Source: Erysipelotrichaceae bacterium (GTDB lineage Bacteria > Bacillota_I > Bacilli_A > Erysipelotrichales > Erysipelotrichaceae). From it: a stretch of DNA of 47,686 bases. This document shows, in pieces, positions 20,551 to 35,981 of the stretch (within the stretch, counting starts at the first letter, position 1; every line of letters begins with the position of its first letter). The stretch covers positions 1 through 47,686 of the forward strand of contig JAUNIH010000006.1 of NCBI GenBank assembly GCA_030523555.1. Reading direction: 5' to 3'. The notes beneath the pieces were generated by a model. The model was not told where the DNA came from, ran no database searches, and was given only the letters and a program-made list of their open reading frames with translations. The position numbers were made by a program, and so were the translations under genes.

Positions 20551-20584
20551 TTTAGGAATTTTGATTTTTCTTACGAATAATGTA
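20551..20584 (+). promoter_or_regulatory. Sigma-H/ComX-type promoter of the T7SS operon
   Basis: AGGAATT (20554-20560) is followed after 14 bases by GAAT (20575-20578), which lies in TACGAATA (20572-20579). Box sequences and spacing equal those of Bacillus sigma-H promoters such as spoVG, and TACGAATA is the streptococcal com-box octamer. The 34-bp stretch matches that at 34994-35027 in 32 of 34 positions. An A-rich tract (20522-20550) just upstream may act as an UP element. The transcript would start at or just before the ribosome-binding site AAGGAGGT (20588-20595). Confidence 0.82.
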
Positions 20585-20599
20585 TCGAAGGAGGTAAAA

Positions 20600-20902
20600 A
20601 TGAGATCGATACAAGTTGAACCAGAAAGACTGGAAGCTGTCGCATCTAACATTGAAAACGCCAATAGTGAATATCAGCGCTATGTGTCTATGATGTACGC
20701 TTCCATCGAGCGAATGTCTGCGTCATGGCAGGGAAAGGACAATACGGCTTTTACCAATCAGATAAAGACATTTGAAGATGACCTTAAACAGATTTCCATC
20801 ATTATGACCGAATATTCCAATTTCTTGAGAAATTCGGCAAGAGCCTACAGAGAAACACAGGATGAACTGTATGCTCAGGCATCCAAATTAAGAACGATCT
20901 AA
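20600..20902 (+). CDS. WXG100-family protein (EsxA-like)
   Basis: A 100-residue all-helical WXG100 protein, the exact family size. The hairpin turn motif is SWQGKDN (about residues 41-47), between two amphipathic helices. WXG100 proteins are exported as dimers by type VII secretion and can act as substrates or as structural partners of other substrates. The start is set at 20600 by AAGGAGGTAAAA; the longer frame begins upstream of the predicted transcript. First gene of the T7SS operon, ten bases before a second WXG100-like gene. Confidence 0.92.
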   Translation: MRSIQVEPERLEAVASNIENANSEYQRYVSMMYASIERMSASWQGKDNTAFTNQIKTFEDDLKQISIIMTEYSNFLRNSARAYRETQDELYAQASKLRTI

Positions 20903-20911
20903 GGAGGTTAT

Positions 20912-21214
20912 ATGGATCAGAATTCTATCAGAATTACACTTCATGAAGTAAGTAATATCGCTTCAGAAATCAGAAACTGTAACGGCAATATGGATGCGAC
21001 ATTATCGACTGTTACCAGATTAATGAATGAATTAAACAGTGTCTGGCAGTCAGAAGGTCAGGAAACATTACTTGCACGTTTTCAGAGATTTTCATCAGTA
21101 TTCAATGATGAATCTGAAATTATCGAATCCTATGCTCGATTTTTAGATGATACCGTATCATCTTACGATTCATTAGAATCGACAATTGTTGCGAATGCTG
21201 CCAACTTCGATTAA
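20912..21214 (+). CDS. Second WXG100-like protein (EsxB-like) with YxxxE export signal
   Basis: Also 100 residues and helical. The turn reads VWQSEGQE, so the glycine of W-x-G is serine with glycine two further on, a relaxed WXG. Near the C-terminus SYDSLES gives Y-x-x-x-E, the general T7SS export signal, which the first protein lacks in clear form. The pair therefore looks like a heterodimer in which this one carries the signal. Strong ribosome-binding site AAGGAGGTTAT. The 3' end overlaps the next gene by 20 bases. Confidence 0.88.
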   Translation: MDQNSIRITLHEVSNIASEIRNCNGNMDATLSTVTRLMNELNSVWQSEGQETLLARFQRFSSVFNDESEIIESYARFLDDTVSSYDSLESTIVANAANFD

Positions 21215-23093
21215 TAAGACTGTTCTTCGTCTTGCAGTGATTTTTATGTTTGTTGTCTGCGCATCCTGCAGGGCGGAGACGCCTTATTATGTCAAAAACT
21301 ATTTAAATGATTTATCCACTCTCAGTGGCATAGGGAATGCTGAAGATCTGATGGGAAATCTTCAGAGTCTGAGAGAATGGGAAATCATAGATGAAGAAGA
21401 CATAAATCATCTCGACGATAAACTGGATTATTTATTTCTTACTTCAACCATTTCCCGCTTTACCGGTTTGGACAACAGTATGTCAGCTCTAGTAAGAGAG
21501 GGCTGGATATCATCCAAAGCCCTTCCAAGAGAAAAGGTAAGCTATGAAACAGGATTAAAGGTGATTCAAAGTGCAATCGAATACAGGAATAATCCGGTAA
21601 CAGATTTCACCTATGAAACAGCCTACACCGATAATGTTGTTTCGGAAGATGAAGCGAGTAATGTGGGAGATGTCTATTTCAGCAATGAAAAAGGTACTTA
21701 TCAGAAAATCACTCAGACAGATGATGGAAACATTGGAACAGAAGACGCTTCATTCAGCGATGTATTTGATAATTATGATTATTCTGATACCTATGAAGTA
21801 GACTTTTCTCTAGCTGAAGTCATTCCTTATGAGCCTGATCCGGAAGCTGATATCTATGTCAATCATAAATATCAGCTGATGGCGGCCAAAAGCCAGTCTT
21901 TTCGTAAGAATGGCTTTTCCATATCATATTCTCTTTCTTCGTCCGGTATAAGCTTTCATATCTCGAAGAATGTCAATGGTATAAATTTCTTCAGTGATAT
22001 TGATATCTATTCCGTAAAACCGACAATAAAGTGGAAATACCGTGAAGGAGATATCAAGAACTGTTTCTTTGATGTGAAGTTCAATTCAACCCAGAAACTG
22101 GGTATGAGTATCGGTAAATACGGTAACTATTACCTGCAGTTTAAAGACCTTGATTCAAGCAGTTTCATGTCTTTACTTAAAACCATGGTACAGCCTCACA
22201 ATGATTATGTTGAGGCAAGTTTTCCCTTGGCTCAGGTAAAGACCCCGATTCCTAATGTTCCTACAGCTTTTCTTAATCTTGATCTCTTAGTGAATCTTTA
22301 TGTATCAGGAAAGGTGGAAGTCGTTTTATACAACGCTCATGAAATGGGTTTTGAAACGAGCAATGGAAGTTTAAGAACCATATCTTCACATTCCAATAAG
22401 ATGGATGGAGATATAGGAGGAAGCACTAAAGCGGCTTTAGGCGTTAATTTTGCCCTGGAGGCGGTAAATACCAGACTTGCGGATATTGAAGTCGATGGGG
22501 GCCTCAGAACAAAGCTGAAGAGCACTCTTCATCTATATAACGAAGATGGAAAGAAAACAGGGGAAGAGACAAGCGATATTGACTATTCAATACTTCAGGA
22601 AATCACCAAAGAAAACAATAATGTCAAAGTGTGCGGCGATATCTCTTTGAGCTGGCTTTTTGATATAAGACTCAATACACCTAAGACGAAACTTTATTCT
22701 TTAGGTTTAGGAAGAACACTCAATATTCTTGATGAAAGTGATCAGATATTTGGAAATCTTTCGCATATTGAAAATGGGATGTTTGTAAAGAAATGTACGC
22801 GAAGTGATAAACCATCATTAAGCTCACAGGCTATACCTGTCGCATCAAATAAGATAGTTCTTAATTCCTATGCGGAAGTGCTCAATGTCAATGAAACATT
22901 TGTGATTGAAGTTGAAAGTCTGCCGGAAGGGTATACTATTGATGATTTAAGATATTCAAGCAGCGATAATACTATCGCATCAGTGAGCGGTAAAACCATC
23001 AAAGCCTTAAAACCGGGATCATGTCAGATACATGTATCATCCAGTGACGACAAATACACATCCTATATCAATATTCTGGTGAGTACAGGCTGA
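21195..23093 (+). CDS. Large secreted T7SS-operon protein with Big-like C-terminal domain
   Basis: A 632-residue exported protein. Residues 1-25 form a signal segment (LAVIFMFVVCASC); C25 could be a lipidation site, though the lipobox is imperfect. Residues about 40-125 hold two helical repeats (LREWEIIDEEDINHLDDK; VREGWISSKALPREKV) that recall degenerate SLH repeats. A long beta-rich middle (about 230-520) is unrecognised. The end (about 550-632, NKIVLNSYAEVLNVNETF ... YSSSDNTIASVSG) is a bacterial Ig-like (Big_2-type) domain. It fills the place between WXG100 and essC genes where membrane T7SS parts usually lie, and overlaps both neighbours. A structural or surface role in secretion is inferred, not shown. 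Confidence 0.75.
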   Translation: MLPTSINKTVLRLAVIFMFVVCASCRAETPYYVKNYLNDLSTLSGIGNAEDLMGNLQSLREWEIIDEEDINHLDDKLDYLFLTSTISRFTGLDNSMSALVREGWISSKALPREKVSYETGLKVIQSAIEYRNNPVTDFTYETAYTDNVVSEDEASNVGDVYFSNEKGTYQKITQTDDGNIGTEDASFSDVFDNYDYSDTYEVDFSLAEVIPYEPDPEADIYVNHKYQLMAAKSQSFRKNGFSISYSLSSSGISFHISKNVNGINFFSDIDIYSVKPTIKWKYREGDIKNCFFDVKFNSTQKLGMSIGKYGNYYLQFKDLDSSSFMSLLKTMVQPHNDYVEASFPLAQVKTPIPNVPTAFLNLDLLVNLYVSGKVEVVLYNAHEMGFETSNGSLRTISSHSNKMDGDIGGSTKAALGVNFALEAVNTRLADIEVDGGLRTKLKSTLHLYNEDGKKTGEETSDIDYSILQEITKENNNVKVCGDISLSWLFDIRLNTPKTKLYSLGLGRTLNILDESDQIFGNLSHIENGMFVKKCTRSDKPSLSSQAIPVASNKIVLNSYAEVLNVNETFVIEVESLPEGYTIDDLRYSSSDNTIASVSGKTIKALKPGSCQIHVSSSDDKYTSYINILVSTG

Positions 23094-26000
23094 TGTTTCT
23101 GATAATCGATGATCGAAGAATTCTACAGTTCTTTGATGTAAAAGAAGATCATCTAATAGAAGGAATATATCTTAAAAAGAAGAAAGATATCTTTTATCTG
23201 TGTCTAGAAAACGGGTATGTCTTTTCTGATCACTGTAAGATCAAAAGACTGAAGGCTGATAAATATACCATTCATCATGAACTCTTCTATAACGAGATAA
23301 ATATCTATGTCTATGAAGATGATAAGGGTATAAATGATTATAACTTCTATAAAAGAAAAGACTTTATCATATCAGCTAGTGAAAACAGTCATATTATTAC
23401 TAGAGACAGATATCTCAAGAACGCATATTTGTCTTTGGTGGATGATGTGCTCAGCGCTAATTTTCCGGTATATCTTAATAAGTGTTTTGCCCATGATGAA
23501 GAAAAGATTAAAAGTGGAGACAGAATAGATTTTCTGGGTATACGTATCTATGTCTTTGATGATTTCTATTATATGAACGGGTTTATGATGGATAATCATC
23601 TTCCTTTATATGATACAGATCCTAAGATCATAAAGTATCATCACAAGAAAGAAAAAGCGGTCTACAATATCTCGGGACATGTGAAAAGATATGAACTGAA
23701 ACCTTTAAAGAAATATGAAAAACCGAAGATTCAGAAAAAAGAAATAAACAGTATCTTTCCAAATCTCATAATGGTTATCTCTTTATCATGTATCGCGGGA
23801 ATAAGTTTCTATAATTCCTATCTTCATGATCAGCCGTTATTAAACAGGATATCATTTGTCGTTATGCCTGTAGCGATGATGATAAGTGGAATATTCATAC
23901 CATTGATATCCTATCTTCTTAATGAAAGAAAAAACCGAAAGATTATCAACAGAAGTATTGAAGATTATCTTTCGTATCTTGATGAATATGAAAAAGAATC
24001 ATTATCGAAAATAGAAGAATATCTGAACAGATGTAACAGCTATTATTTTTCTTTAAGAGATACTTCAGGAAAACTGTTTTCATGTCAGAAGAAGGATGAT
24101 TATTTTATGCATATATCCTTAGGAAAGATGAAGACATCTTTTCCTTTGGAATATGAAAATACAAATGAAGAAAAGATAGACAGAAGACTTGATGAAATAA
24201 AAAGAAGATTTATGGATATTGATGGATATCCATTGATGTTTGATCTTATGAAATATAGAAGAATGAGTCTTGTCTCTATAAAGGAAGAAAAGGATTTCTT
24301 TTTCAATAAGATACTTCTGGAACTATCCTATAAACATCATTATGATGATGTGCTCATTGCCTTATATTCTAAAGATTCAAGAATCTATAATTCTTTCTAT
24401 AATCTTCCGCATCTTTTCTATAAGGGTATGAGACTAACCTTCAACAGTGAAAAACAGCTTAAACTCTTAAACAGTATCGAAGAAGAAAAACCTGTAATCC
24501 TGATGATGTATGATTACCTTGATATAAAAGGTCTGAATGATAATATCCATTGTCTTTATTTTTCAGATGATATTAGAAATCTTCTCAAAGACAATGAAGC
24601 TCTTATTGAATACCGGAACTCTAAGGCCTATCTTTTTGAAAATGAAAAAAGAGAATTTCACTACGAGATAGAAAGAATCAATTTTGAAGAATACTATACA
24701 TATCTAGGGAAAATAAAAACTTTTAAAGGAAGCGAGAATATCAGCAGCTTCAATCAGTATTTCGATATAAGAAAAATTGATGATTATTATCATCACCATG
24801 ACAAAAGGCTTAAGGCCATCTTTGCCTTAGGAAGTGAAGAGGTTCTTAAATTGGATCTTCATGAAAAGGGTTATGGTCCTCATGGGCTTATCGGAGGATC
24901 TACCGGTTCAGGAAAGTCAGAACTGATAGTATCCTTACTTTTGTCATTATGCATAAAATATCCGCCTGATTATCTTAATATTGTCCTTATCGACTATAAG
25001 GGTGGAGGCATAAAAGAGTCTTTATCATACAAGGGACAAAGTGTTCTCCATATCATTGCCTGCGTGAGTAATCTAGAACATAACGCCCTTGAAAGACTGA
25101 TAATTGCCTTAAATCTTGAGTGCAAGAAAAGACAGTCATCTTTCAATGAGATGTCGCATATTCTGAATACTTCAATCATGAATCTTGATGATTATCTTGA
25201 TAATCTTAATAGGTGTAAAGATTCTGAAAAGATGGCACATCTTCTGATTGTGGTGGATGAGTTTGCGGAGCTTAAAAAACTTCATCCTGAAGAGATAAAG
25301 GAGCTGATCTCCATCTCAAGAATCGGAAGAAGCTTAGGCATACATCTCATACTTGCCACCCAGAAACCGGCAGGCGTCATCGATGAAGAGATATGGTCCA
25401 ATTCAAGATTCAAGATAGCGCTGAAGATGTTTGATGAGAAAGATTCAAATGATGTTTTAAAGGTTCCGGATGCGGCATATCTAAGTGAACCTGGCTCATT
25501 TCTTTTAAGAGTAGATGATGAAATAAACAGATACAGAAGTATCTACGCCAGAAACGATATGAGTGATTATGATCCTTATAGAGTCAGTCTTTTTGATAAT
25601 CTATTAAGAAAAGAAAAAGAGACAAAAAAAGAAATCTCAGGATCCAAGACACAATGTGAAGCGTACTGTGAAAAGATAAATGAGATATCATCAGCCAAAG
25701 GATATCATTTAAAGGACTTTGATTTTTTATCACCATTACCTATGGAAAGAAAGAAACTGTGCAGTCAGAAATGTTTTGTGATAGGGGAAAGTGATGATTA
25801 TCTCAATAATAAAAAGGGTCTTGTGGCTTATGGTTTAAAAGAAAATATTCTTATATGTTCATCAAGAAAAAAAGAGATAAATTCATTTCTTAATACGCTT
25901 AATGAATATAAAAGAAAGACAATTGTCATATCTAACAGATATTATCAGAATGAAATGATATCCGACAGTATTCTATATCATGAAACAGAAGATATCATTT

Positions 26001-26707
26001 ATCTGTTTAAGATACTGTTAAAGGAAGACCTTGATATATGTCTCCTGATAGAAGATGTCTTTTCTTTTCTTTCATACAGTGAAGATTATCTTAATCTTCT
26101 GATAAACCTTCTGAAACAGAATGAAGGAAAGAAGATGAATATCCTGTGTTTTACAAATAATTCTTCCATCAGTTACCGTCTGATAAACTGTTTCAAGAAA
26201 CGTATTCTTATTGAAATCAGTGAATTAAGCAGTATTGTCGATTTCTATTCGATGAAGAGTATGTATAAGGGAAGAAGTTTCTATTATAAGAATGAACCGA
26301 TAACTTTTGTACCGGTAGTGACTGAAGAGTTTATGTATGGAGAAAGGGAGCAGAGAAATATCGTCCGTCATATCCCTAAAAAGATTAAGCCGATGATTAT
26401 CGAAAACCACAGCCTTATCGGTTATGACCTTAAAAACCGTTCCAAGATCTTTGTGAAACAGAATCTTAAGATTTTCTCTTTAAAGGAAGATTTATTAAAA
26501 CCATACAGGAAATATTCAGATATGGATGTCCAGGTATATGACTATAAGACTGTAAAACTGGAAGGTAAGGATATCTTATGGCTGGGTCCTGGTATCTTTG
26601 AACAGCGTCTTTTCATTACTTCTTTAAGAAATGATCTAAGTGATGATGAAGGTGTATATGTACATCTGGGACAGCCGTATAAGATAAGGATACTAAATGA
26701 TGAATAG
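23093..26707 (+). CDS. essC: Type VII secretion ATPase EssC-like (FHA-FtsK/SpoIIIE)
   Basis: A 1204-residue EssC-type motor. It has an N-terminal FHA-like region (about 1-190, second repeat with KSGDRIDFLGIRIYVF), two transmembrane helices (about 224-245 and 255-277), a linker, then FtsK/SpoIIIE ATPase domain 1 with Walker A GGSTGSGKSE (about 600-609), DYKGGG, and Walker B LLIVVDEFAEL (about 715-724). After it, a second domain has no P-loop (ENILICSSRKKEINSFLNTL, about 922) and a third is fragmentary. Staphylococcal EssC is about 1480 residues with three domains, so this one is some 275 shorter. It begins on the stop codon of the preceding gene (TGATG). Confidence 0.9.
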   Translation: MFLIIDDRRILQFFDVKEDHLIEGIYLKKKKDIFYLCLENGYVFSDHCKIKRLKADKYTIHHELFYNEINIYVYEDDKGINDYNFYKRKDFIISASENSHIITRDRYLKNAYLSLVDDVLSANFPVYLNKCFAHDEEKIKSGDRIDFLGIRIYVFDDFYYMNGFMMDNHLPLYDTDPKIIKYHHKKEKAVYNISGHVKRYELKPLKKYEKPKIQKKEINSIFPNLIMVISLSCIAGISFYNSYLHDQPLLNRISFVVMPVAMMISGIFIPLISYLLNERKNRKIINRSIEDYLSYLDEYEKESLSKIEEYLNRCNSYYFSLRDTSGKLFSCQKKDDYFMHISLGKMKTSFPLEYENTNEEKIDRRLDEIKRRFMDIDGYPLMFDLMKYRRMSLVSIKEEKDFFFNKILLELSYKHHYDDVLIALYSKDSRIYNSFYNLPHLFYKGMRLTFNSEKQLKLLNSIEEEKPVILMMYDYLDIKGLNDNIHCLYFSDDIRNLLKDNEALIEYRNSKAYLFENEKREFHYEIERINFEEYYTYLGKIKTFKGSENISSFNQYFDIRKIDDYYHHHDKRLKAIFALGSEEVLKLDLHEKGYGPHGLIGGSTGSGKSELIVSLLLSLCIKYPPDYLNIVLIDYKGGGIKESLSYKGQSVLHIIACVSNLEHNALERLIIALNLECKKRQSSFNEMSHILNTSIMNLDDYLDNLNRCKDSEKMAHLLIVVDEFAELKKLHPEEIKELISISRIGRSLGIHLILATQKPAGVIDEEIWSNSRFKIALKMFDEKDSNDVLKVPDAAYLSEPGSFLLRVDDEINRYRSIYARNDMSDYDPYRVSLFDNLLRKEKETKKEISGSKTQCEAYCEKINEISSAKGYHLKDFDFLSPLPMERKKLCSQKCFVIGESDDYLNNKKGLVAYGLKENILICSSRKKEINSFLNTLNEYKRKTIVISNRYYQNEMISDSILYHETEDIIYLFKILLKEDLDICLLIEDVFSFLSYSEDYLNLLINLLKQNEGKKMNILCFTNNSSISYRLINCFKKRILIEISELSSIVDFYSMKSMYKGRSFYYKNEPITFVPVVTEEFMYGEREQRNIVRHIPKKIKPMIIENHSLIGYDLKNRSKIFVKQNLKIFSLKEDLLKPYRKYSDMDVQVYDYKTVKLEGKDILWLGPGIFEQRLFITSLRNDLSDDEGVYVHLGQPYKIRILNDE

Positions 26708-26930
26708 TGTAAATCTGCGTTTCTATGTCCTCAAGAATGATCAGGTGTATGAAGTATCATTTGATACAAGGATATCATTTAAAGATAATATGGGGATGTT
26801 AAAGGTGATGGAAGATATCGTTAATGAAGATATGAAGGTTTATGACAACACAAAAGGTATATTTTTAAGGATGGATGTGCCTTTAAAAGAAATGGAGATA
26901 GAGTGTTTTACGAGCTTTTATCTGCTATAG
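26697..26930 (+). CDS. YukD/EsaB-like ubiquitin-fold protein
   Basis: A 77-residue protein of the size and place of YukD/EsaB, the small ubiquitin-like component of Bacillota T7SS. Strand-helix-strand pattern NLRFYVLKNDQVYEVSFDTRI (shown to residue 21 only in part here) with a C-terminal hydrophobic strand FTSFYLL is compatible with the fold, but sequence identity to known members looks low. It overlaps essC by 11 bases and ends the T7SS operon. EsaB in Staphylococcus is cytoplasmic and regulates the system. Confidence 0.6.
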   Translation: MMNSVNLRFYVLKNDQVYEVSFDTRISFKDNMGMLKVMEDIVNEDMKVYDNTKGIFLRMDVPLKEMEIECFTSFYLL

Positions 26931-26958
26931 TGATATAATTTTCTACGGAGGTAGATTT

Positions 26959-27768
26959 ATGTCTGAATGTACTCATAACTGTTCTGGATGTTCTAAAGAC
27001 TGTGGCACAAGAAAGCCTGTAGCACCTTTAGAAGGAACTGAAATAAAACATATCATTGGCATCTTAAGCGGTAAGGGAGGCGTAGGTAAATCCATGGTCT
27101 CTTCTTTACTGGCGGTTGAACTGGCTAAGAAAGGATACAGCGTAGGTATTCTGGACGCTGATATTACCGGTCCAAGTATTCCTAATATCTTCAATATTCA
27201 TGGACAGCTTCTGGGTGATGGAAAGGGTATTTTCCCTGCCGAAACCCCACTTGGTATTCATGTCGTATCCATCAACAATATGGTGGAAAGCGAAGACATG
27301 CCGGTTATCTGGAAGGGACCAATCCTCGGCAATGTCATCAAACAGTTCTATACGGAAGTATACTGGGGATCTCTTGATTATCTTCTGATTGATATGCCTC
27401 CAGGAACATCCGATGTAGCCATTGCTGTCTTACAGGAAATTCCGGTTGACAGTTTTGTGATGGTGACAACGCCTTCAAAACTCGTATCCATGGTTGTGGG
27501 TAAAGCTATCAATATGACAAAGAATGTCGGTAAACCGATCCTTGGTTTAGTAGAAAATATGGCTTATGTAAAGTGTGACGAATGCGGTCATGAAATAAAT
27601 ATCTATGCCCACGATGAGACAGAAGATACAGCCAAGAAGTATGGAATTGAACTTCTGGCTAAGTTACCTATAGATCCTGTACTCGCAAATCTTACTGATG
27701 AAGGAAAGATTGAAGAATACGAAGAAAAATATCTTTCAAAGGTAGTAGAAACACTGGAAAAAGAATAA
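26959..27768 (+). CDS. Mrp/ApbC-family Fe-S cluster carrier ATPase
   Basis: A 269-residue Mrp/NBP35 P-loop ATPase that carries and delivers iron-sulphur clusters. The deviant Walker A is SGKGGVGKSMV (GKGGVGKS at 38-45), a switch region contains DADITGPSIPN, and a CxxC pair (C206, C209 in VKCDECGH) makes the dimer-bridging cluster site. The N-terminus adds a cysteine-rich CTHNCSGCSKDC (residues 4-15) as in NBP35-type members. ACGGAGGTAGATTT precedes the start. It follows the T7SS operon by 28 bases, which contain a TATAAT, so it is likely transcribed separately as well. Confidence 0.9.
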   Translation: MSECTHNCSGCSKDCGTRKPVAPLEGTEIKHIIGILSGKGGVGKSMVSSLLAVELAKKGYSVGILDADITGPSIPNIFNIHGQLLGDGKGIFPAETPLGIHVVSINNMVESEDMPVIWKGPILGNVIKQFYTEVYWGSLDYLLIDMPPGTSDVAIAVLQEIPVDSFVMVTTPSKLVSMVVGKAINMTKNVGKPILGLVENMAYVKCDECGHEINIYAHDETEDTAKKYGIELLAKLPIDPVLANLTDEGKIEEYEEKYLSKVVETLEKE

Positions 27769-27787
27769 AGCACGAAAGTGCTTTTTC
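27769..27787 (+). terminator. Terminator of mrp
   Basis: AGCAC-GAAA-GTGCT stem-loop followed by TTTTTC, directly after the stop codon. Confidence 0.85.
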
Positions 27788-27837
27788 TTGTATAATGGAA
27801 ATAGACTCTCTAAAAATATTAAAAGTATAGATTTTTA

Positions 27838-27866
27838 TTGAAAAGAGAAATTACTTTTGGTATGAT
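27838..27866 (+). promoter_or_regulatory. Promoter of rplU-prp-rpmA
   Basis: TTGAAA (27838-27843), exactly 17 bases, TATGAT (27861-27866). A leader of about 100 bases follows. Confidence 0.82.
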
Positions 27867-27872
27867 ACTTAT

Positions 27873-27968
27873 GTTATGGTCTCTCCTTAGAGGGGATTAT
27901 AACCGCACAGAAAAGGTTTATTAAGACATTAGTCACCTTCATGGCGAGTCTGAATCTAAATAAAGGAG
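27873..27968 (+). ncRNA. L21 leader RNA
   Basis: The leader ahead of rplU contains a hairpin TCTCCT/AGGGGA, a conserved-looking AACCGCACAGAAAAGG segment and a second stem closed by AGAC/GTCT around TCACC...GGCGA. This arrangement matches my recollection of the L21-leader autoregulatory RNA of Bacillota. The 5' end is inferred from the promoter. Confidence 0.65.
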
Positions 27969-27975
27969 GTAAACT

Positions 27976-28284
27976 ATGTACGCAATTATTGAAACAGGCG
28001 GCAAACAGCTGATGGTAGAAGAAGGCCAGACAATCTATGTTGAAAAACTGGATGTTGAAGCTGGTCAGGACTACACATTTGATAAGGTTGTTGCCTTAGA
28101 AAACAACGGTCTGACAGTTGGTGCTCCATATGTTGATGGTGCAACTGTTACCTGCAAAGTTGAAAAGCAGGGTAAGGAAAAGAAGATTGTTATCTTCAAG
28201 TACAAGGCTAAGACTGGCTCTACCAGACGTAAACAGGGTCATCGTCAGCCATACACCAAACTGACTGTTACCAAAATCGGCTAA
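27976..28284 (+). CDS. rplU: 50S ribosomal protein L21
   Basis: A 102-residue L21 with the opening [11 protein letters not shown] and the C-terminal [18 protein letters not shown] that binds 23S rRNA. AAAGGAGGTAAACT precedes it. First gene of the conserved rplU-prp-rpmA set; its stop shares one base with the prp start. Confidence 0.98.
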
Positions 28285-28589
28285 TGGTTAAAGTTGTATA
28301 TGAAGCAGATGAAAATCATTATCTGACACTTGAAGTAAGCGGACACGCTGAAGCAGGTGAATATGGAAATGATCTGATATGTGCTTCCGTAAGCAGTATC
28401 GTCTTCGGACTTATGAATGCGCTAGACGCATTAGAGAAAGAAATCGATATTGAGGTGTACGAAAATTTGATTTCGATTGATATTCATGAAGTTTCAGATA
28501 TTACAGACAATTATATGGAACTTGTGATGATCCAGTTAAAAACGATTGAAGAATCCTATGGAGACTTCATAAAGGTAGAAAGGAAGTAA
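28284..28589 (+). CDS. prp: Ribosomal-processing cysteine protease Prp
   Basis: A 101-residue Prp, the protease that removes the N-terminal extension of L27 in Bacillota before ribosome assembly. Catalytic H21 and C33 lie in [18 protein letters not shown], the family motif. It sits between its substrate gene rpmA and rplU, as in other Bacillota, overlapping rplU by one base. Confidence 0.96.
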
Positions 28590-28594
28590 AACAA

Positions 28595-28879
28595 ATGAAA
28601 TATGTTTTAGATATTCAGTATTTCGCTTCTAAAAAGGGTGTTAGTTCGACCAAGAACGGACGTGATTCACATTCAAAGCGTTTAGGTGCGAAATTGGCAG
28701 ATGGTCAGTTTGCGACAGCGGGCTCAATCATATACCGTCAAAGAGGCACAAAGATTCATCCTGGTACAAATGTAGGCAAGGGTGGAGATGATACATTATT
28801 CTGTCTTGTTGATGGTGTTGTTAAGTATGAACATTTAGGCAAAGACAAAACAAAGGTTTCTGTTTATCCAGTCGCTTAA
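28595..28879 (+). CDS. rpmA: 50S ribosomal protein L27 with Prp-cleaved leader peptide
   Basis: A 94-residue L27. The N-terminus [25 protein letters not shown] has the extension cut by Prp after phenylalanine, here QYF rather than the commoner QFF. Mature L27 begins ASKKG and its tail reaches the peptidyl transferase centre. The ribosome-binding site lies in the end of prp. A terminator follows at 28891. Confidence 0.98.
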
Positions 28880-30215
<1,336 letters not shown>

Positions 30216-30247
30216 TTTACTCAAAGAGTATAAAGAGTAATCAATGT

Positions 30248-30253
30248 TATAAT
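30248..30253 (+). promoter_or_regulatory. -10 box of ruvAB, leaderless arrangement
   Basis: TATAAT ends six bases before the ruvA ATG at 30260, so the start codon would be at about +1. There is no Shine-Dalgarno sequence and no good -35 box. Confidence 0.5.
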
Positions 30254-30259
30254 AGAAAC

Positions 30260-30820
30260 ATGATTGGATTTGTAAGAGGTATCGTTCACGCATTCGGTAT
30301 GGATTGGGTATTGGTAGATGTCCATGATGTCGGTTACCGTATTAACTTTTATCATCCTGAAAGTCTTAAAACCGGCGAAGAAATCATCATCTATACCTAT
30401 CAGAATGTCCGTGAAGATGAACTCAGTCTCTATGGTTTTCTGTCACTGAAAGAGTATGACCTTTTTGTTGATCTGATTTCGGTAAAAGGATTAGGTCCAA
30501 AGATCGCTTCAGGTATTCTTGCCAAGGCATCTGTTGAGTCTATAATTGCCGCTATTGAAGAGGGTAATGTCGACTTTATGCAGAGAATGCCTGGTGTCGG
30601 CAAAAAGACCGCTTCACAGATTATCCTTGACTTAAAGGGTAAACTTGTTGAAAGTTCTGAACAGGTTATCGATAATGAAAAACTTAAAGATGTTCAGGAA
30701 GTATTAAAGGCTTTAGGCTATAAACCGATGGAAATAAAACCGGTAATAAAGAGACTGGAAAATGAAGATGGTTCAACGGATGAGCTCGTTAAAAAAGCTT
30801 TATCGATGTTAAAGAAGTAA
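30260..30820 (+). CDS. ruvA: Holliday junction complex subunit RuvA
   Basis: A 186-residue RuvA that binds four-way junctions as a tetramer and recruits RuvB. Domain I (OB fold, 1-64, MIGFVRGIV), domain II with helix-hairpin-helix motifs VKGLGPKIASGIL and MPGVGKKTASQIIL (about 73-120), and C-terminal domain III that contacts RuvB. Three bases separate it from ruvB. No ribosome-binding site is present before the start. Confidence 0.96.
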   Translation: MIGFVRGIVHAFGMDWVLVDVHDVGYRINFYHPESLKTGEEIIIYTYQNVREDELSLYGFLSLKEYDLFVDLISVKGLGPKIASGILAKASVESIIAAIEEGNVDFMQRMPGVGKKTASQIILDLKGKLVESSEQVIDNEKLKDVQEVLKALGYKPMEIKPVIKRLENEDGSTDELVKKALSMLKK

Positions 30821-30823
30821 GAA

Positions 30824-31825
30824 ATGGAAGAAACTGTTTTAAGTGCTGAAAGAACTAAGGAAGATGAAGACGCTTCGCTTAGACCGCAATCATTGAATGA
30901 ATATGTAGGACAGAAAGATCTGAAAGAAAATCTGGAGGTTTTTATCAAGGCTGCAAAGCTAAGAGATGAATCTTTGGATCACGTTCTTTTATATGGCCCT
31001 CCAGGTTTAGGTAAAACGACTATGGCGATGATTATCGCCAATGAGATGAATTCGCATATTCATATCACCTCAGGTCCAAGTATTGAAAGAAGCGGAGATC
31101 TCGCAGCTATTCTATCAAGTATAGAAGCGGGTGATGTCCTGTTCATAGATGAAATTCATCGTTTACCTAAAGTGGTAGAAGAAGTATTATATCCCGCCAT
31201 GGAAGATTTCTGTATTGATGTCGTTATCGGTAAGGAAGAAGGCGCAAGATCAATAAGACTTGATCTTCCACCGTTTACACTTGTTGGCGCTACCACAAGA
31301 GCGGGCGCCATATCTTCGCCATTAAGAGACCGTTTCGGTATAACCGCAAAACTCAATTACTATAATGAAGAAGAACTGGCGACAATTGTAAGAAGAACTT
31401 CAAGAGTCTTTGATACAAAGATTGATGAAGAAGCAGTCATTGAAATTGCCAAGAGATCACGTGGTACACCACGTATCGCCAACAGGTTATTCAGAAGAGT
31501 AAGAGATTTCGCTCAGGTTAAAAACGATGGAAAGATAGATCTTGAAATTGCCAAGAGCGCCTTACAGAGACTCAAGGTTGATTCATTAGGTTTGGATGAT
31601 GTAGACATCCGTTATCTTAAGGGTATTATTGAAAGATATCATGGTGGTCCGGTAGGTGTAGAAGCCATCGCTTCAGCGATCGGTGAAGAAGCTATTACTT
31701 TAGAAGATGTCAATGAACCGTATCTCTTACAGATCGGCTTTATCAACCGTACGGCAAGAGGCAGAACGGTTACGGAAAAAGCCTATGAACATTTAAGGAT
31801 TGAAACCGAACAGCGATTATTCTAA
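30824..31825 (+). CDS. ruvB: Holliday junction helicase motor RuvB
   Basis: A 333-residue AAA+ ATPase driving branch migration with RuvA. It shows the start [13 protein letters not shown], Walker [10 protein letters not shown] (about 57-65), Walker B LFIDEIHR, sensor 1 LVGATTRAG, the arginine finger region SPLRDRFG, and a winged-helix C-terminus with [10 protein letters not shown]. Operon with ruvA. Confidence 0.97.
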
Positions 31826-31840
31826 ATATTTTAAATAAAA

Positions 31841-31870
31841 TTGATATTTTAAAAGTTATTATGATAGAAT
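31841..31870 (+). promoter_or_regulatory. Promoter of rpmG
   Basis: TTGATA (31841-31846), 18-base spacer, TAGAAT (31865-31870). Both boxes are the same as at rplM. Confidence 0.65.
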
Positions 31871-31898
31871 AAATTAGCGTAAATGGAGGGAAATATAA

Positions 31899-32051
31899 AT
31901 GCCTAGAGATTTTATAACATTCAAGTGCACTGAATGTGGTGAAGAAAACTACACAGGTTCTAGAAATAAGAAGAAACATCCAGAAAAGATGGAAATCAAA
32001 AAGTTCTGTTCTAGATGCAATAAGATGACTGTTCATAAGGAGAAAAAATAG
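31899..32051 (+). CDS. rpmG: 50S ribosomal protein L33
   Basis: A 50-codon gene: MPRDFITFKCTECGEENYTG and onward, ending KMTVHKEKK. Two CxxC pairs (CTEC, CSRC) make it the zinc-binding type of L33. GGAGGGAAATATAA precedes the ATG. The stop codon lies in the stem of its terminator. Confidence 0.95.
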   Translation: MPRDFITFKCTECGEENYTGSRNKKKHPEKMEIKKFCSRCNKMTVHKEKK

Positions 32052-32068
32052 GCTATGCCTATTTTTTT
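32043..32068 (+). terminator. Terminator overlapping the rpmG stop codon
   Basis: AAAAAATAGGC (32043-32053) pairs with GCCTATTTTTT (32057-32067) around TAT. Confidence 0.9.
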
Positions 32069-32075
32069 ATAAGAT

Positions 32076-32669
32076 ATGGAAATAAGGACATATGTTTTAG
32101 GTCCGATAGAGACCAATACCTATCTTCTTACAGACGGTAATGATGCGTTGCTGATAGACCCGGCATCAAAACCGGAAAAGTGTATTGAAATACTCAAAGA
32201 CTATAATCTTGCGGGTATTCTGCTTACCCATGGTCATTTTGATCACATCAAGGCTGTAGATGGTCTGTATAATAAATACCACTGTCCGGTATATCTTCAT
32301 GAAGATGATGAGTTTCTCGCAAGAGATAAAAACTCCGGTGCATCTTTTGGATTGGTTGCCTATATCAGTGTACCTACCATTCCTTTAAAGGAAGGTAAGA
32401 TGAAGATTCATGATTTTGAATTTGAAGTTATATTTACTCCTGGACATACACCAGGTTCCGTAATCTATGTCTTTGAAGATGCGATCTTTACCGGTGATAC
32501 TTTATTCAGATGTTCGGTGGGAAGAACTGATCTTGAAGGTGGAAACTTTAGAGACTTAAACAGTTCCCTCCAGATCTTTAAATCATTTAAGAAGGATTAT
32601 CTCATCTATCCGGGACATGAAGCGCCAAGTACCTTATACTTTGAACTTGACAATAACCCTTATCTTTAA
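32076..32669 (+). CDS. Metallo-beta-lactamase-fold hydrolase, glyoxalase II-like (YqgX type)
   Basis: A 197-residue cytoplasmic MBL hydrolase. The metal motif is LLTHGHFDHIKAV, followed by FTPGHTPGSVIY, FTGDTLFRCSVGRTDL and YPGHEAPSTL, giving the full two-metal site of the GloB-like short hydrolases found in all Bacillota. It begins eight bases after the rpmG terminator with no ribosome-binding site, so how it is expressed is unclear; terminator read-through is one option. Confidence 0.88.
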   Translation: MEIRTYVLGPIETNTYLLTDGNDALLIDPASKPEKCIEILKDYNLAGILLTHGHFDHIKAVDGLYNKYHCPVYLHEDDEFLARDKNSGASFGLVAYISVPTIPLKEGKMKIHDFEFEVIFTPGHTPGSVIYVFEDAIFTGDTLFRCSVGRTDLEGGNFRDLNSSLQIFKSFKKDYLIYPGHEAPSTLYFELDNNPYL

Positions 32670-32670
32670 G

Positions 32671-32694
32671 AAAACGCTCTAATCGAGCGTTTTT
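32671..32694. terminator. Bidirectional terminator between MBL and SIS genes
   Basis: AAAACGCTC (32671-32679) pairs with GAGCGTTTT (32685-32693), with A and T runs on each side. It serves the convergent genes. Confidence 0.9.
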
Positions 32695-33601
32695 ACATTT
32701 CCTTATTAAAGAGATAAAAGAGATCATTATCTTCAAGTTCTTTCATATCGGAAATATCATAATGATGATTGAGCGCGATTTTAATAATCAGAATCATCGA
32801 AAGATAAGAACAGTAATAATCGTTTATGACAGGATCATCATATTTTTTATCAATAATGATCATTGAATTAAAATGTGATGGAAGCTGACTAATCATCATC
32901 TCATCAATATCCTTAAAGGAATTGAAATAGATAAGGTCGTAATTATCAGTTCTTGAAAGATTGAGTCTGCCGTGACAGTAGTTATACTTGTCGCTGAGGA
33001 TACACGATGCCATACCTGATTCATTGAATGATGATTCCAGAAGCACTGCGGCACATCTGTTTTCATAACCGTATATCACCTGGTAGTTTTTATTACGACT
33101 GTCAGTTTCAATATCTGAAGAGATGATATCTTTTAAGAGTTTTATATCATTACAGTAATATAAGAATAGTAAACTGAGTGGAACCATGGTTGCACTGATG
33201 GAAACATATGATACTTCCTCATTCATCTTATAGAGAAGACAGTCTATGCCTTCTTTTTTATTTCCGGTAAAAAGATAGTGGTGAAGATCATTGTCGAAGG
33301 AGACATCAACTCCGATATTTCTTCCGGAATAGGAGACGCTGATGATATTCTTATATCCGCTTAAATCCATATATTTAATATCTCGAGGAGAGACATATGT
33401 AGCGATGATGTGGTTCTTTTCACTTAAGACTTTAGCCATGAATGTGGCAACAACGCTCGAACCGCCAACGCCGGTGACAAGAGTCGGTTCTTGAATATTT
33501 TCAAGCTGTCTGAAAAGTGTATCCGTATCCGTATCTTTTATGGAATCAAGGATATTGGAATTAAGATTTGTATAACAGTCATTCATTGAATCATAGATCA
33601 T
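32693..33601 (-). CDS. SIS-domain phosphosugar-binding protein
   Basis: A 302-residue protein with a SIS-type fold: LVTGVGGSSVVATFMAKVL near residue 40 and ISVSYSGRNIGVD near 90 are the phosphosugar-binding segments, with SFNESGMAS later as in two-domain sugar isomerases. No DNA-binding part is present, so it is an enzyme or binding protein and not an RpiR regulator. It overlaps the PfkB gene by 11 bases, implying a kinase-isomerase pair acting on the same sugar phosphate. The sugar is unknown. The start at 33601 begins MIYDSMNDCY; the longer frame lies inside the upstream gene. Confidence 0.75.
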   Translation of the reverse strand: MIYDSMNDCYTNLNSNILDSIKDTDTDTLFRQLENIQEPTLVTGVGGSSVVATFMAKVLSEKNHIIATYVSPRDIKYMDLSGYKNIISVSYSGRNIGVDVSFDNDLHHYLFTGNKKEGIDCLLYKMNEEVSYVSISATMVPLSLLFLYYCNDIKLLKDIISSDIETDSRNKNYQVIYGYENRCAAVLLESSFNESGMASCILSDKYNYCHGRLNLSRTDNYDLIYFNSFKDIDEMMISQLPSHFNSMIIIDKKYDDPVINDYYCSYLSMILIIKIALNHHYDISDMKELEDNDLFYLFNKEM

Positions 33602-34517
33602 AATTGTGTTCCTTTGCGAAATTTTCGAGGGCTTCAAAAGAGGCGACACCACCTAAACCTCCAAGTACTGTACAGGCATAGGCTCCAGAAATACTGGCAT
33701 ATCTTAAAGCTCTTTCATATTCAAAACCTTTTATAAGGCAAGCCAGGAAGGTTCCCGCAAAAGAATCTCCGGCACCGGTTGAATCCTTGACGTTTATATT
33801 CTTTACGCTTTCAGCGTAGTATTCCTTATCTTTTGTGTAAAGATGAGTTCCATTTGAACCATCTGTTACACAGATGAATTCGGCATTATTGTTAAAAAGA
33901 ATTGTTTTGGGATCTTCTGAGGAATGTTTCTTTAAACGCTGATAATCGGTTTTATTGATAAACAGTCCATCCGCAAGATCATACAGCATCTTTACCCTTA
34001 TCGGATCATCATATTTACTTGTTCCATCAATAATAATTCTGGATCCATGTCTTTTGGCTTCAAGTAAGGGTTCAATCGAAGAAAAAGAACGGTTGATGAT
34101 ATGCAAAAGGGAATATGCATACTTTGAACTGTTAAGAAGATCCTGCATCTTTTCATCAACTTCATAGTGAGGTCTTATCGGATCCACCACAAACATCGTT
34201 CTCTTATCACCTGTATTGATGATGATAACTTTACCGTTGGATACCTTTTCTCTGATTATGATATTTTCACAGTCCATGTTGAGGCGTCTGGCTTCACTTA
34301 TAAGAAAAGCTGTACTTTCATCATCTTTCCCCAACATATCCAGTGCTTTGACACTTATCTTTTTACTGGCAGCGACTGCCCCTGCATTGAAAGGACAGCC
34401 ACCGGCACTTGAGCCTGTATAACGGGCATGAGAAAAATCACCTTCTATAGGATAGCTTTCAGCTTCATAGAAATAATCGACACTGCTTCCAAGTATTGTC
34501 AGTAAGTAATCTTCCAT
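33591..34517 (-). CDS. PfkB-family carbohydrate kinase
   Basis: A 308-residue ribokinase-like kinase: SSAGGCPFNAGAVAASK is the sugar-binding motif and DSTGAGDSFAGTFLA holds the catalytic aspartate. VVDPIRPHYEV and DGTSKYDDPIR between are not typical of ribokinase, fructokinase or adenosine kinase, so the substrate is open. It is the first gene of a two-gene operon with the SIS protein. A TATAAT lies seven bases before the ATG and there is no ribosome-binding site. Confidence 0.82.
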   Translation of the reverse strand: MEDYLLTILGSSVDYFYEAESYPIEGDFSHARYTGSSAGGCPFNAGAVAASKKISVKALDMLGKDDESTAFLISEARRLNMDCENIIIREKVSNGKVIIINTGDKRTMFVVDPIRPHYEVDEKMQDLLNSSKYAYSLLHIINRSFSSIEPLLEAKRHGSRIIIDGTSKYDDPIRVKMLYDLADGLFINKTDYQRLKKHSSEDPKTILFNNNAEFICVTDGSNGTHLYTKDKEYYAESVKNINVKDSTGAGDSFAGTFLACLIKGFEYERALRYASISGAYACTVLGGLGGVASFEALENFAKEHNYDL

Positions 34518-34524
34518 TAACTAA

Positions 34525-34530
34525 ATTATA
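34525..34530 (-). promoter_or_regulatory. -10 box of the PfkB-SIS operon, leaderless arrangement
   Basis: On the minus strand TATAAT is followed by seven bases and the ATG at 34517, with no Shine-Dalgarno sequence. Confidence 0.5.
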
Positions 34531-34579
34531 GCCAAAATATATTAAAATATAATTAACTTGAATCTCTTAAGGAGGGCAT

Positions 34580-34963
34580 ATGGAAGAAATTGAAAAGAAA
34601 GAAGTCAGTAATGAAGAACTGATGGAAAAACTCGATCAGCTGATTGAAGTAAATAATGAACAGCGTGAATATATCAGAAGACAGAAACTTATGTCGCAGA
34701 TTAGTATGGGTATAAATCTTGTGATGATCATAGCTGTTGTCGTTGTACTGTGGATATATGTACCTAAAGTAATGAACTTTGTGAATGAAGTTCAGAGTAT
34801 GGTTGATGAGTTTAGCGCAATCGGCGATACGATGAGTAAGCAGCTGCCTGGTATTATGGATAATCTCAATTCAATAGACTTTGAAGGATTGAGTTCAATG
34901 ATTGATGAAGTCTCGGCAACTCTTACGCCATTGAAAGATTTTCTCAGTATTTTTCAAAGATAA
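34580..34963 (+). CDS. Single-pass membrane protein with coiled-coil N-terminus
   Basis: A 127-residue protein of unknown function. Residues 5-40 are charged and heptad-like (EEIEKKEVSNEELMEKLDQL), a transmembrane helix spans about 50-70 (INLVMIIAVVVVLWIYV), and the rest is an extracytoplasmic helical region with repeated hydrophobic spacing (about 75-127). AAGGAGGGCAT precedes the start. It lies just before comGA but is separated by a terminator. No family is recognised. Confidence 0.7.
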   Translation: MEEIEKKEVSNEELMEKLDQLIEVNNEQREYIRRQKLMSQISMGINLVMIIAVVVVLWIYVPKVMNFVNEVQSMVDEFSAIGDTMSKQLPGIMDNLNSIDFEGLSSMIDEVSATLTPLKDFLSIFQR

Positions 34964-34967
34964 TTAA

Positions 34968-34993
34968 AAAAAGTCACGAAAGTGACTTTTTCT
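34968..34993 (+). terminator. Terminator just before the comG promoter
   Basis: AAAAAGTCAC-GAAA-GTGACTTTTT with T-rich tail. The tail runs directly into the AGGAATT box of the comG promoter. Confidence 0.9.
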
Positions 34994-35027
34994 TTTAGGA
35001 ATTTTCGTTTTTCTTACGAATAATGTA
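34994..35027 (+). promoter_or_regulatory. Sigma-H/ComX-type promoter of the comG operon
   Basis: AGGAATT (34997-35003) is followed after 14 bases by GAAT (35018-35021) within TACGAATA (35015-35022). It is the twin of the T7SS promoter at 20551-20584; only the two bases at 35006-35007 (CG instead of GA) differ. Start codon choices are GTG 35028 and ATG 35031, so the transcript would begin within a few bases of the start codon. Confidence 0.83.
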
Positions 35028-35030
35028 GTG

Positions 35031-35981
35031 ATGGAAGAAAGACTGCTTGCACTACTGAAACTGGCCCTTAAATATCATGCGAGTGATATTCATTTTCTGG
35101 TGGTGAAAAATGAATGCTCAATTGAGATGAGGGTCGATGGTAAATGCCGTAAAGTCAAAGGTAAAGCTCAGGACTACAAACTCGTAAGGTACCTGCAGTA
35201 TCTCTCCAACCTTGATGTCGGCATGATCACGAAACCCCAGACGGGGCAGTTTGAAATGGATGTTGAAGGGAATCTCCTGTCTTTACGATTTGCGATCATC
35301 CATGAGCTCAATATGATCAACGGTGTATTGCGTATTCTTAATTCCAGAATCAACCTGTCGGTTCATAGCCTTTCTTTACTTGATTTTCAGAACCGTTATC
35401 TTGAACGGATACTGAAGAAACCAAATGGCCTGATTATTTTTTCCGGTCCTACAGGTTCGGGAAAGACGACTTCCGTCTATACCCTCTTGAAACACATAAA
35501 AGGGAAGAAGATCTTTTCTGTAGAGGACCCGATTGAAGTGTATCACGACGAATTTGTTCAGCTCTCCATAAACGAATCGACAGGTTTTGATTACTCTAAA
35601 GCCGTAGAACAGATACTCCGACATGATCCGGATATCATCATGATTGGCGAAATAAGAGAAGCCAAGGCGGCAAGATGGGCAGTAAACGCCGCCAATACCG
35701 GGCATCTTGTCTTAACGACCATCCATACTTCCAAGGCTTCAGGCTGTATCTCAAGAATGAAGGAACTCGGAGTAAGTGAAGACTATATCTATGAGAACCT
35801 TATATGTCTAATCAATCAGAGAATGATGTATAACGTAAAGACCAGAAAGAAACAGGTACTCTTTGAAATAATGGATGCCAGGGAAATTGAATATTTCAGG
35901 GAACACGGAAGAAACTCTAAAGATTTCTTAAGTATCGACAGACAGATAGAGATGGGAATTAAAGATGGATTATTCACGTAG
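35031..35981 (+). CDS. comGA: Competence pilus assembly ATPase ComGA
   Basis: A 316-residue PilT/PulE-type ATPase that powers the transformation pseudopilus. Walker A is FSGPTGSGKTTS (about 137-148), the Asp box is VEDPIEV, Walker B is IIMIGEIREAKAA, and a His box is HLVLTTIHTSK. Length fits ComGA (about 356 in Bacillus), slightly shorter. No ribosome-binding site precedes either GTG 35028 or ATG 35031. It overlaps comGB by 17 bases and heads the comG operon. Confidence 0.93.
   Translation: MEERLLALLKLALKYHASDIHFLVVKNECSIEMRVDGKCRKVKGKAQDYKLVRYLQYLSNLDVGMITKPQTGQFEMDVEGNLLSLRFAIIHELNMINGVLRILNSRINLSVHSLSLLDFQNRYLERILKKPNGLIIFSGPTGSGKTTSVYTLLKHIKGKKIFSVEDPIEVYHDEFVQLSINESTGFDYSKAVEQILRHDPDIIMIGEIREAKAARWAVNAANTGHLVLTTIHTSKASGCISRMKELGVSEDYIYENLICLINQRMMYNVKTRKKQVLFEIMDAREIEYFREHGRNSKDFLSIDRQIEMGIKDGLFT

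What the first reader, a model, noticed from the sequence alone, without database searches (positions are those of the whole stretch)
20551..35027. T7SS and comG operons share one near-identical sigma-H/ComX-type promoter
Positions 20551-20584 and 34994-35027 are identical in 32 of 34 bases and nothing else around them is alike. Both have AGGAATT, 14 bases, GAAT. That is the box sequence and spacing of Bacillus sigma-H promoters, and the octamer TACGAATA is the com-box read by streptococcal ComX/SigX. By eye I found no third copy in the window on either strand. One promoter leads the pilus genes for DNA uptake, the other leads WXG100-essC. The inference is a single competence-type sigma factor that turns on type VII secretion with transformation, which would couple attack on neighbours to DNA capture, as other bacteria do with bacteriocins or T6SS. 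I know of no description of T7SS in such a regulon.
Basis: partly seen in the sequence, partly recalled or inferred. Interest (0 to 1): 0.93.

Follow-up and report, generated by a model that had tools for sequence, protein, structure and literature searches.

The report
Secretion machine wired to DNA uptake
In a bacterium related to Solobacterium, one promoter sequence stands before the DNA-uptake and recombination genes, a type VII secretion operon and several toxin-antitoxin pairs, so that all of these are likely switched on together when the cell takes up foreign DNA.

Summary
The box at the T7SS and comG operons (32 of 34 bases identical) is one of 22 copies in the genome at up to 2 mismatches, against 0 for the reversed pattern. 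Of the 22, seven stand before transformation and recombination operons (comG, comEA, comFA, dprA, recA, recN, a JAB-like gene), one before the T7SS, nine before toxin-antitoxin-type genes, and five before small or unclear places. The box fits the SigH consensus and spacing; a SigH-like sigma gene is present and no sporulation sigma was found. Across the genus the box is kept at both promoters and drifts in step: in 20 genomes the comG and T7SS boxes match better within than between genomes (0 of 200,000 permutations). EssC and comGA also tend to be absent together. This strongly supports the regulatory inference, by sequence only. The 'attack' half is not shown: no LXG toxin in the 37 genomes searched, 23 of them of the genus, and no toxin-immunity cassette recognised beside the operon. 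Five searches pairing T7SS with competence terms found no report of such a link.

The parts
20551..20584 (+). competence-type (SigH/ComX-like) promoter box of the T7SS operon: AGGAATT ... TACGAATAAT
   Evidence: in-step drift with comG in 20 genomes
20600..20902 (+). WXG100 protein (100 aa), first gene of the T7SS operon, preceded by GGAGG
   Evidence: TIGR03930 56.3 bits over cut-off 44.85; PF06013
20912..21214 (+). second WXG100 protein (100 aa), NCBIfam 'pore-forming ESAT-6 family'
   Evidence: NF035934 110.2 bits over cut-off 100; PF06013
21189..23093 (+). predicted lipoprotein (634 aa): SLH-like domain, long-stranded beta domain, C-terminal Ig-like domain
23093..26707 (+). EssC-like FtsK/SpoIIIE ATPase (1204 aa)
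   Evidence: PF01580 69.3 bits; TIGR03928 339 bits, below its cut-off 778; EssC-like match in 30 of 36 genus genomes, some of them contig-end fragments
26700..26930 (+). 76-aa ubiquitin-fold protein, EsaB/YukD-like, last gene of the T7SS operon
   Evidence: AlphaFold2 pLDDT 89.5; Foldseek to ubiquitin-like folds, TM 0.68-0.80; a 71-96-aa ORF after EssC in 18 of 18 relatives' loci examined, 17 of them aligned at 14-41% identity
34994..35027 (+). competence-type promoter box of the comG operon
35028..35981 (+). comGA, traffic ATPase; GTG 35028 or ATG 35031, so the mRNA is likely leaderless or nearly so
   Evidence: PF00437 233 bits over cut-off; NF041000 249.9 bits, cut-off 300
35965..36972 (+). 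comGB
   Evidence: NF041012 88.8 bits, below its cut-off 240; PF00482 over cut-off
36983..37276 (+). comGC major pilin
   Evidence: NF040999 87.1 bits over cut-off 75
37254..38444 (+). four small ORFs, likely ComG minor pilins (order and size only)
   Evidence: ORF list; no family search run

Best explanation
The T7SS operon carries the same promoter box as comG, comE, comF, dprA, recA and recN in this genome, and that box is likely read by the SigH/ComX-like sigma factor encoded on contig C27, so that T7SS would be made together with the DNA-uptake machine. Shown by sequence: the box, its spacing, its 22 copies, the genes behind them, and its in-step drift at comG and T7SS across the genus. 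Inferred: that the C27 sigma reads it, and that the regulon is silent outside competence. Role of the T7SS, inferred and weaker (about 0.4): a competence-phase envelope machine that exports its own WXG100 pair and helps the cell acquire DNA, through contact or wall remodelling, as ESX-4 does in mycobacterial recipients, rather than an injector of diverse toxins. The toxin-antitoxin operons behind the same box would set a reversible growth brake while the cell is competent.
For: 22 sites at <=2 mismatches against 0 reversed controls, 7 of them before transformation/recombination operons. Match to the SigH consensus of PMC4754846 at spacer 11 (passage; 13 of 16 consensus positions by my count). 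Sigma-70 region 2/4 protein on C27, next to genes I read as rlmB, mrnC and cysS; the only other sigma-70 region 2 genes over the cut-off are SigA-sized C89 and ECF-like C56. Box regex at comG in 23 of 26 and at T7SS in 21 of 23 genus genomes, shuffles 0.135 and 0.193. Within- vs between-genome box similarity 21.2 vs 11.9, 0 of 200,000 permutations; 8 representatives below 70% ComGA identity still 2 of 100,000. EssC and comGA: both 27, EssC only 3, comGA only 2, neither 4 of 36 (Fisher p 0.008); among 17 genomes >=90% complete, both 15, neither 2, discordant 0 (p 0.007). For the envelope role: SLH-type lipoprotein, no LXG in 37 genomes, ESX-4 induced in the DCT recipient (PMC9040860, passages).
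Against: No transcript, binding or expression data. The sigma is below all NCBIfam SigH cut-offs. The comparative tests do not fully remove shared ancestry; the two >=90% complete genomes lacking both genes may be one loss. The own-genome pattern is not enriched in relatives: 43 hits against 51 reversed controls in 60 genomes, which I put down to drift of the box. In G006, G021, G026 and G029 the two boxes of a genome are no closer than between genomes (scores 10-12). Five of 22 sites have no clear gene of this kind behind them. No box was seen before ssb, which was not located. EsaA, EssA and EssB are not in the operon. The adjacent murein-hydrolase-like gene in 8 of 16 relatives fits killing at least as well.
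Confidence: 0.82

Rival explanations
1. Same regulation, but the T7SS is a weapon: in competence it would lyse neighbours, through the WXG100 pair ('pore-forming ESAT-6 family') or unrecognised substrates, and so release DNA, like SigX-controlled bacteriocins and fratricide hydrolases.
For: Precedents: SigX-controlled bacteriocin synthesis in S. mutans (PMC4497675, abstract); the competence-controlled murein hydrolase CrfP of S. suis (PMC8401462 and PMC9652813, passages). NF035934 name. A glucosaminidase-type secreted protein directly downstream in 8 of 16 relatives, over the Pfam cut-off in 4 of 8. A CdiA_C-like protein behind a 3-mismatch box on C92, E 1.7e-4, below cut-off.
Against: No LXG protein in the 37 genomes searched, B. 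subtilis control positive. No toxin/immunity cassette recognised downstream in 16 relatives, read from ORF starts with nine proteins family-searched. The same five genes recur in relatives.
Confidence: 0.35
2. The box is read by the ECF sigma on C56, or bound by an activator, not read by a SigH-type sigma.
For: An ECF-like gene exists (C56); a GGAA/CGAA pair looks superficially ECF-like.
Against: The GGAAT to CGAAT gap is 14 bases, short of the roughly 16 usual for ECF promoters (recalled), whereas the spacer of 11 is that of SigH. In six genes the start codon lies 5-9 bases after GAAT, where a -10 element would be. The C56 gene sits beside a membrane-protein gene, not competence genes.
Confidence: 0.08
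3. The two window copies are a recent local duplication or gene conversion without regulatory meaning.
For: They lie 14 kb apart in the same orientation and are 94% identical.
Against: 20 more copies on other contigs, most before functionally related genes. In relatives the two operons mostly lie on different contigs (G001 is an exception), and their boxes differ between genomes but match within them.
Confidence: 0.01

Closest known systems
SigX/ComX (cin-box, com-box) regulon of streptococci; SigH competence promoters of Listeria and Staphylococcus aureus
   Same: Box type, spacing, and late competence genes under one alternative sigma; extra functions such as bacteriocins (S. mutans, PMC4497675, abstract) or toxin-antitoxin genes (S. 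aureus, PMC10182052, passages) can belong.
   Different: The main texts of PMC10182052 (S. aureus) and PMC4754846 (Listeria) hold none of the T7SS terms I looked for. Here a T7SS operon and nine toxin-antitoxin-type sites carry the box directly.
ESX-4 of Mycobacterium smegmatis in distributive conjugal transfer
   Same: A small T7SS induced in the DNA-receiving cell; the cited Clark 2018 title names SigM as the sigma (PMC9040860 passages).
   Different: Conjugation between live cells in an actinobacterium, not transformation with com genes; homology of regulation not implied.
T7SSb of Firmicutes (Staphylococcus aureus Ess, Bacillus subtilis Yuk)
   Same: WXG100, EssC-type FtsK ATPase, ubiquitin-fold EsaB-like protein.
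   Different: No EsaA, EssA or EssB in the operon, an SLH-type lipoprotein instead; no LXG effectors in the 23 genus genomes searched (component lists recalled).
Competence-regulated toxTA of Haemophilus influenzae
   Same: A toxin-antitoxin operon under a competence promoter (PMC6957337, abstract).
   Different: One operon under CRP/Sxy there; here nine sites of several families under a sigma-type box.

Membership tests
SigH/ComX-type competence sigma regulon | AGGAWWW / GAAT boxes with an 11-12 base spacer | tested here: met
   Spacer 11; 13 of 16 positions of the Listeria SigH consensus by my count; 22 copies.
SigH/ComX-type competence sigma regulon | box before late competence operons (comG, comE, comF, dprA) | tested here: met
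   relatives: dprA in G003 and G019, comFA in G001 (by reading).
SigH/ComX-type competence sigma regulon | box before ssbB, coiA, comC | tested here: inconclusive
   Not among the 22 sites; these genes were not located one by one.
SigH/ComX-type competence sigma regulon | a SigH-family sigma gene in the genome | tested here: inconclusive
   C27 sigma-70 r2 and r4 over Pfam cut-offs, beside genes read as rlmB-mrnC-cysS (the B. subtilis order is recalled); NCBIfam SigH models 29.8-39.9 bits, cut-offs 208-295.
SigH/ComX-type competence sigma regulon | transcription depends on that sigma | not testable with these tools
   No expression data.
T7SSb | WXG100 substrate genes | tested here: met
T7SSb | EssC ATPase | tested here: inconclusive
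   FtsK_SpoIIIE over the Pfam cut-off; TIGR03928 339 bits, cut-off 778.
T7SSb | EsaB-like ubiquitin-fold protein | tested here: met
   Fold only; no sequence family hit.
T7SSb | EsaA, EssA, EssB in the operon | tested here: not met
   Not among the five operon genes; the rest of the genome was not searched for them.
T7SSb | LXG effectors (typical, not obligatory) | tested here: not met
   0 of 37 genomes (23 of the genus, own included, and 14 of the order), B. subtilis control positive.
Type II / type IV toxin-antitoxin modules (box-driven) | toxin and antitoxin genes adjacent behind the box | tested here: met
   Six pairs at <=2 mismatches: three RHH/DUF6290-ParE, two HigB(Gp49)-HTH, one NTase-HEPN; one AbiEi-AbiEii at 3 mismatches; three sites with a lone antitoxin-type gene (RelB, HicB-like, AbiEi).

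The most novel reading that the evidence does not exclude
[quoted passage not shown] Together with ESX-4 in mycobacterial recipients, this would make DNA acquisition an old and recurrent job of type VII secretion.
Probability: 0.3. Interest if true: 0.95.

Novelty: new variant of a known kind. Interest (0 to 1): 0.82.

Why it matters
What T7SSs do in Firmicutes other than LXG-mediated antagonism, and when they are made, is poorly known. A shared promoter box that is kept and drifts in step with comG across a genus gives a direct, testable answer to 'when': during competence. It would link T7SS to DNA acquisition in Gram-positive bacteria, parallel to ESX-4 in mycobacterial DNA recipients and to bacteriocins under SigX. 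It also shows a competence regulon in which toxin-antitoxin operons carry the sigma box themselves, including all three ParE-family toxins found in the genome.

Tried and rejected
Rejected: local duplication of the window (20 other copies; in-step drift in relatives). Rejected: box as an accident of AT-rich sequence (22 against 0 reversed controls at <=2 mismatches; 31 against 9 at <=3). At 3 mismatches I kept only C71, C83 and C92, which have an exact CGAATAAT, and treated six others (C5, C10, C15:78564, C29, C52, C75) as background; these nine are not in the count of 22.

A result that looks against the reading: the own-genome consensus is not enriched in relatives (43 hits against 51 reversed controls in 60 genomes, my sum; 0-4 hits per genome against 0-5). 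I put this down to drift of the box, seen when the promoters were read directly. I followed up 16 of these 43 hits, picked for likeness to the own sites, not at random. dprA (2), recN (2, about 320 bases downstream), comFA (1), a BrnT-BrnA pair (1) and a lone HTH_3 gene (1) stood behind them; nine stood before other or unclear ORFs.

Dropped before the permutation test: 16 of 36 genus genomes. Four lack both genes (G005, G007, G013, G022); in twelve a gene is missing or one promoter could not be extracted by my regex or contig (G012, G018, G019, G023-G025, G030-G035). That leaves 20. G024's extracted comG upstream shows no box. In family f2 of the same order I saw no such box before comGA in the nine genomes whose upstream was printed, and EssC-like matches are rare there (2 of 24, FtsK domain only).

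Literature: paired T7SS with competence or transformation terms; (Erysipelotrichaceae and competence) found no paper. Of their listings I opened passages of PMC10865971, PMC4754846, PMC4474612, PMC9317001, PMC8401462, PMC3102119 and PMC9652813; none links a T7SS to a competence regulon; the rest were seen as listings only. Searches covered toxin-antitoxin modules, ESX-4, another the box. Clark 2018 (SigM/ESX-4) is not held and is known only from its title in PMC9040860's reference list.

Structure: Foldseek and VIA-align rows for the lipoprotein cover the SLH-like and Ig-like ends; the central beta domain was not folded alone, so no claim of a new fold is made. PADLOC gave AbiE hits and weak hits to other models for the nucleotidyltransferase and HEPN proteins.

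Slips: the patterns had a spacer off by one; one search is the correct one. In one search one Fisher table used 16 genomes instead of 15; one search has the right one. In one search the C62 row took the flanks of C65 because the cores are identical.
Full report
The observation. AGGAATT-N14-GAAT occurs twice in the window against 0.11 expected. A matrix built without the T7SS site scores that site at 43 bits, comG at 50 and the next window position at 6.5.

The genome. The window is contig C61 of a 1.79-Mb, 95-contig, 95% complete assembly. The 20 best EssC matches in named records (80 listed of 113) are titled Erysipelotrichaceae, Solobacterium, Colivicinus or Firmicutes, many from ruminant guts. 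With AGGAATTT-N10-TM-CGAATAAT the genome gives 31 sites at <=3 mismatches against 9 reversed and 22 at <=2 against 0. Seven of the 22 stand before transformation and recombination genes: comG; a comE operon (221-aa ORF, comEA, then a 607-aa ORF I read as comEC); comFA followed by an ORF I read as comFC; dprA (TIGR00732 174 bits, cut-off 191); recA; recN (by reading, AAA_23 over cut-off); and a JAB/RadC-like gene (weak, Prok-JAB E 0.012). One stands before the T7SS. Nine stand before toxin-antitoxin-type genes: three RHH/DUF6290-ParE pairs, two HigB-HTH pairs, one NTase-HEPN pair, and lone RelB, HicB-like and AbiEi genes. The other five are a 53-aa ORF, a region with a possible 23-aa hydrophobic peptide, a HAD ORF with an in-frame stop, a place with no ORF, and a contig end. 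All three ParE-family toxins found in the genome are in this set.

The promoter type. The box fits the SigH consensus used for Listeria (passage of PMC4754846) at 13 of 16 positions by my count, with the 11-base spacer. TACGAATA as the streptococcal com-box core is recalled; PMC7218084 (passages) uses the combox but does not print that word. The genome has three sigma-70 region 2 genes over the cut-off: SigA-sized C89, an ECF-like gene on C56, and C27, a 215-aa protein beside genes I read as rlmB, mrnC and cysS. That neighbourhood is the sigH locus of B. subtilis (recalled). No sporulation sigma was found by that search, so a SigH-like sigma here is likely free for competence.

Relatives. EssC-like matches occur in 30 of 36 genus genomes (some, such as G025 and G033, are contig-end fragments) and comGA in 29 of 36: both 27, EssC only 3, comGA only 2, neither 4 (Fisher p 0.008). 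The discordant five are all under 79% complete; among the 17 at >=90%, 15 have both and 2 neither (p 0.007). Upstream sequence could be extracted for comG in 26 genomes and for T7SS in 23. A loose box regex matches 23 of 26 and 21 of 23, against 0.135 and 0.193 in shuffles. More telling, the box differs between genomes but agrees within them: G014 has GTAGGTGAA and TTTTTTGCAGATAAAGATAT at both operons, G009 CCTGTCAATAAAGA, G008 ATTTTCACAATAA, G016 GGCTCATAAAGAATAG, and G004 lacks the AGG at both. In the 20 genomes with both, mean within-genome alignment score is 21.2 against 11.9 between (0 of 200,000 permutations). This holds without the own genome, for the last 42 bases only, and for representatives below 85, 80, 75 and 70% ComGA identity (0, 0, 0, 0, 0 and 2 of 100,000). 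The own T7SS box is the best partner for 11 of 20 comG boxes; G006, G021, G026 and G029 do not show the effect individually. The operons mostly lie on different contigs in relatives, so local gene conversion does not explain this.

The T7SS itself. Five genes: two WXG100 proteins, a lipoprotein with a predicted SLH-like domain, a beta domain and an Ig-like domain, an EssC-like ATPase, and a ubiquitin-fold protein. EsaA, EssA and EssB are not in the operon. No LXG protein was found in the 37 genomes searched, 23 of them of the genus. I recognised no toxin/immunity cassette downstream in 16 relatives, reading ORF starts; nine downstream proteins were family-searched. Eight of the 16 have a ~900-aa secreted protein on the same strand 9-50 bases after the ubiquitin-fold gene; a Glucosaminidase domain is over the Pfam cut-off in four, below it in three, and not found in one. 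A TAATGATAAAAT-like stretch before this gene in several of them may be its own promoter, so co-transcription is not claimed.

Mechanism. Best supported: a competence sigma makes the T7SS together with the DNA-uptake machinery. For its role I lean to an envelope machine aiding DNA acquisition (about 0.4), because the same five genes recur, the lipoprotein looks wall-bound, EssC and comGA tend to be absent together, no polymorphic toxins were recognised, and ESX-4 is induced in mycobacterial DNA recipients (PMC9040860, passages). Killing of neighbours (about 0.35) has good precedent in SigX-controlled bacteriocins (PMC4497675, abstract) and the competence-controlled murein hydrolase CrfP (PMC8401462, PMC9652813, passages), and gains from the adjacent glucosaminidase. 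The toxin-antitoxin modules may act as a growth brake. Precedents: one competence-regulated operon in H. influenzae (PMC6957337, abstract) and toxin-antitoxin genes in the S. aureus competence programme (PMC10182052, passages).

Novelty. Searches of the held library, with seven listed papers opened for passages, found no report of a T7SS in a competence regulon; subscription journals are largely missing from it. I rate it a new variant of a known kind, a competence sigma regulon with T7SS and toxin-antitoxin modules as likely members.

Noticed in passing
G000 sites C18, C19, C39, C65, C74 (x3), C77, C84, and C71 at 3 mismatches (loci L014, L082, L096, L018, L031, L330, L020, L099, L013): Nine (ten with C71) toxin-antitoxin-type operons or lone antitoxin genes carry the competence box; all three ParE-family toxins found in the genome are among them.
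   Followed up: partly
window 35018-35031; C59 dprA, C20 comFA, C15 recN, C62, C39: Start codon only 5-9 bases after GAAT of the -10 box, so several competence mRNAs are likely leaderless; by reading, the same holds for comGA in G001, G002, G018 and G019.
   Followed up: partly
L250, L253, L254, L242, L251, L243, L245, L247, just after the T7SS operon: A ~900-aa secreted protein with a Glucosaminidase domain (over cut-off in 4 of 8) follows the T7SS operon on the same strand; not at this place in the window's genome.
   Followed up: partly
G000:C92:681-708 (L094): A box with 3 mismatches precedes a 183-aa protein with a weak CdiA_C nuclease match and no obvious partner gene.
   Followed up: partly
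G000:C24:14590 (L101): A box followed by a possible 23-aa hydrophobic peptide and short inverted repeats, reminiscent of a type I toxin.
   Followed up: no
G000:C74:27486-29323: A second set of pilB/pilT-like traffic ATPases, so the genome likely has another type IV pilus besides ComG.
   Followed up: no
L255-L262 (Solobacterium and relatives): A more distant version of the same T7SS operon lies downstream of a gene I read as rbfA, with TTTTTAGGGGA-like sequences before the first WXG100 gene in some.
   Followed up: no
G000:C13:20432 (L100): A box stands before a HAD-family ORF interrupted by an in-frame stop.
   Followed up: no
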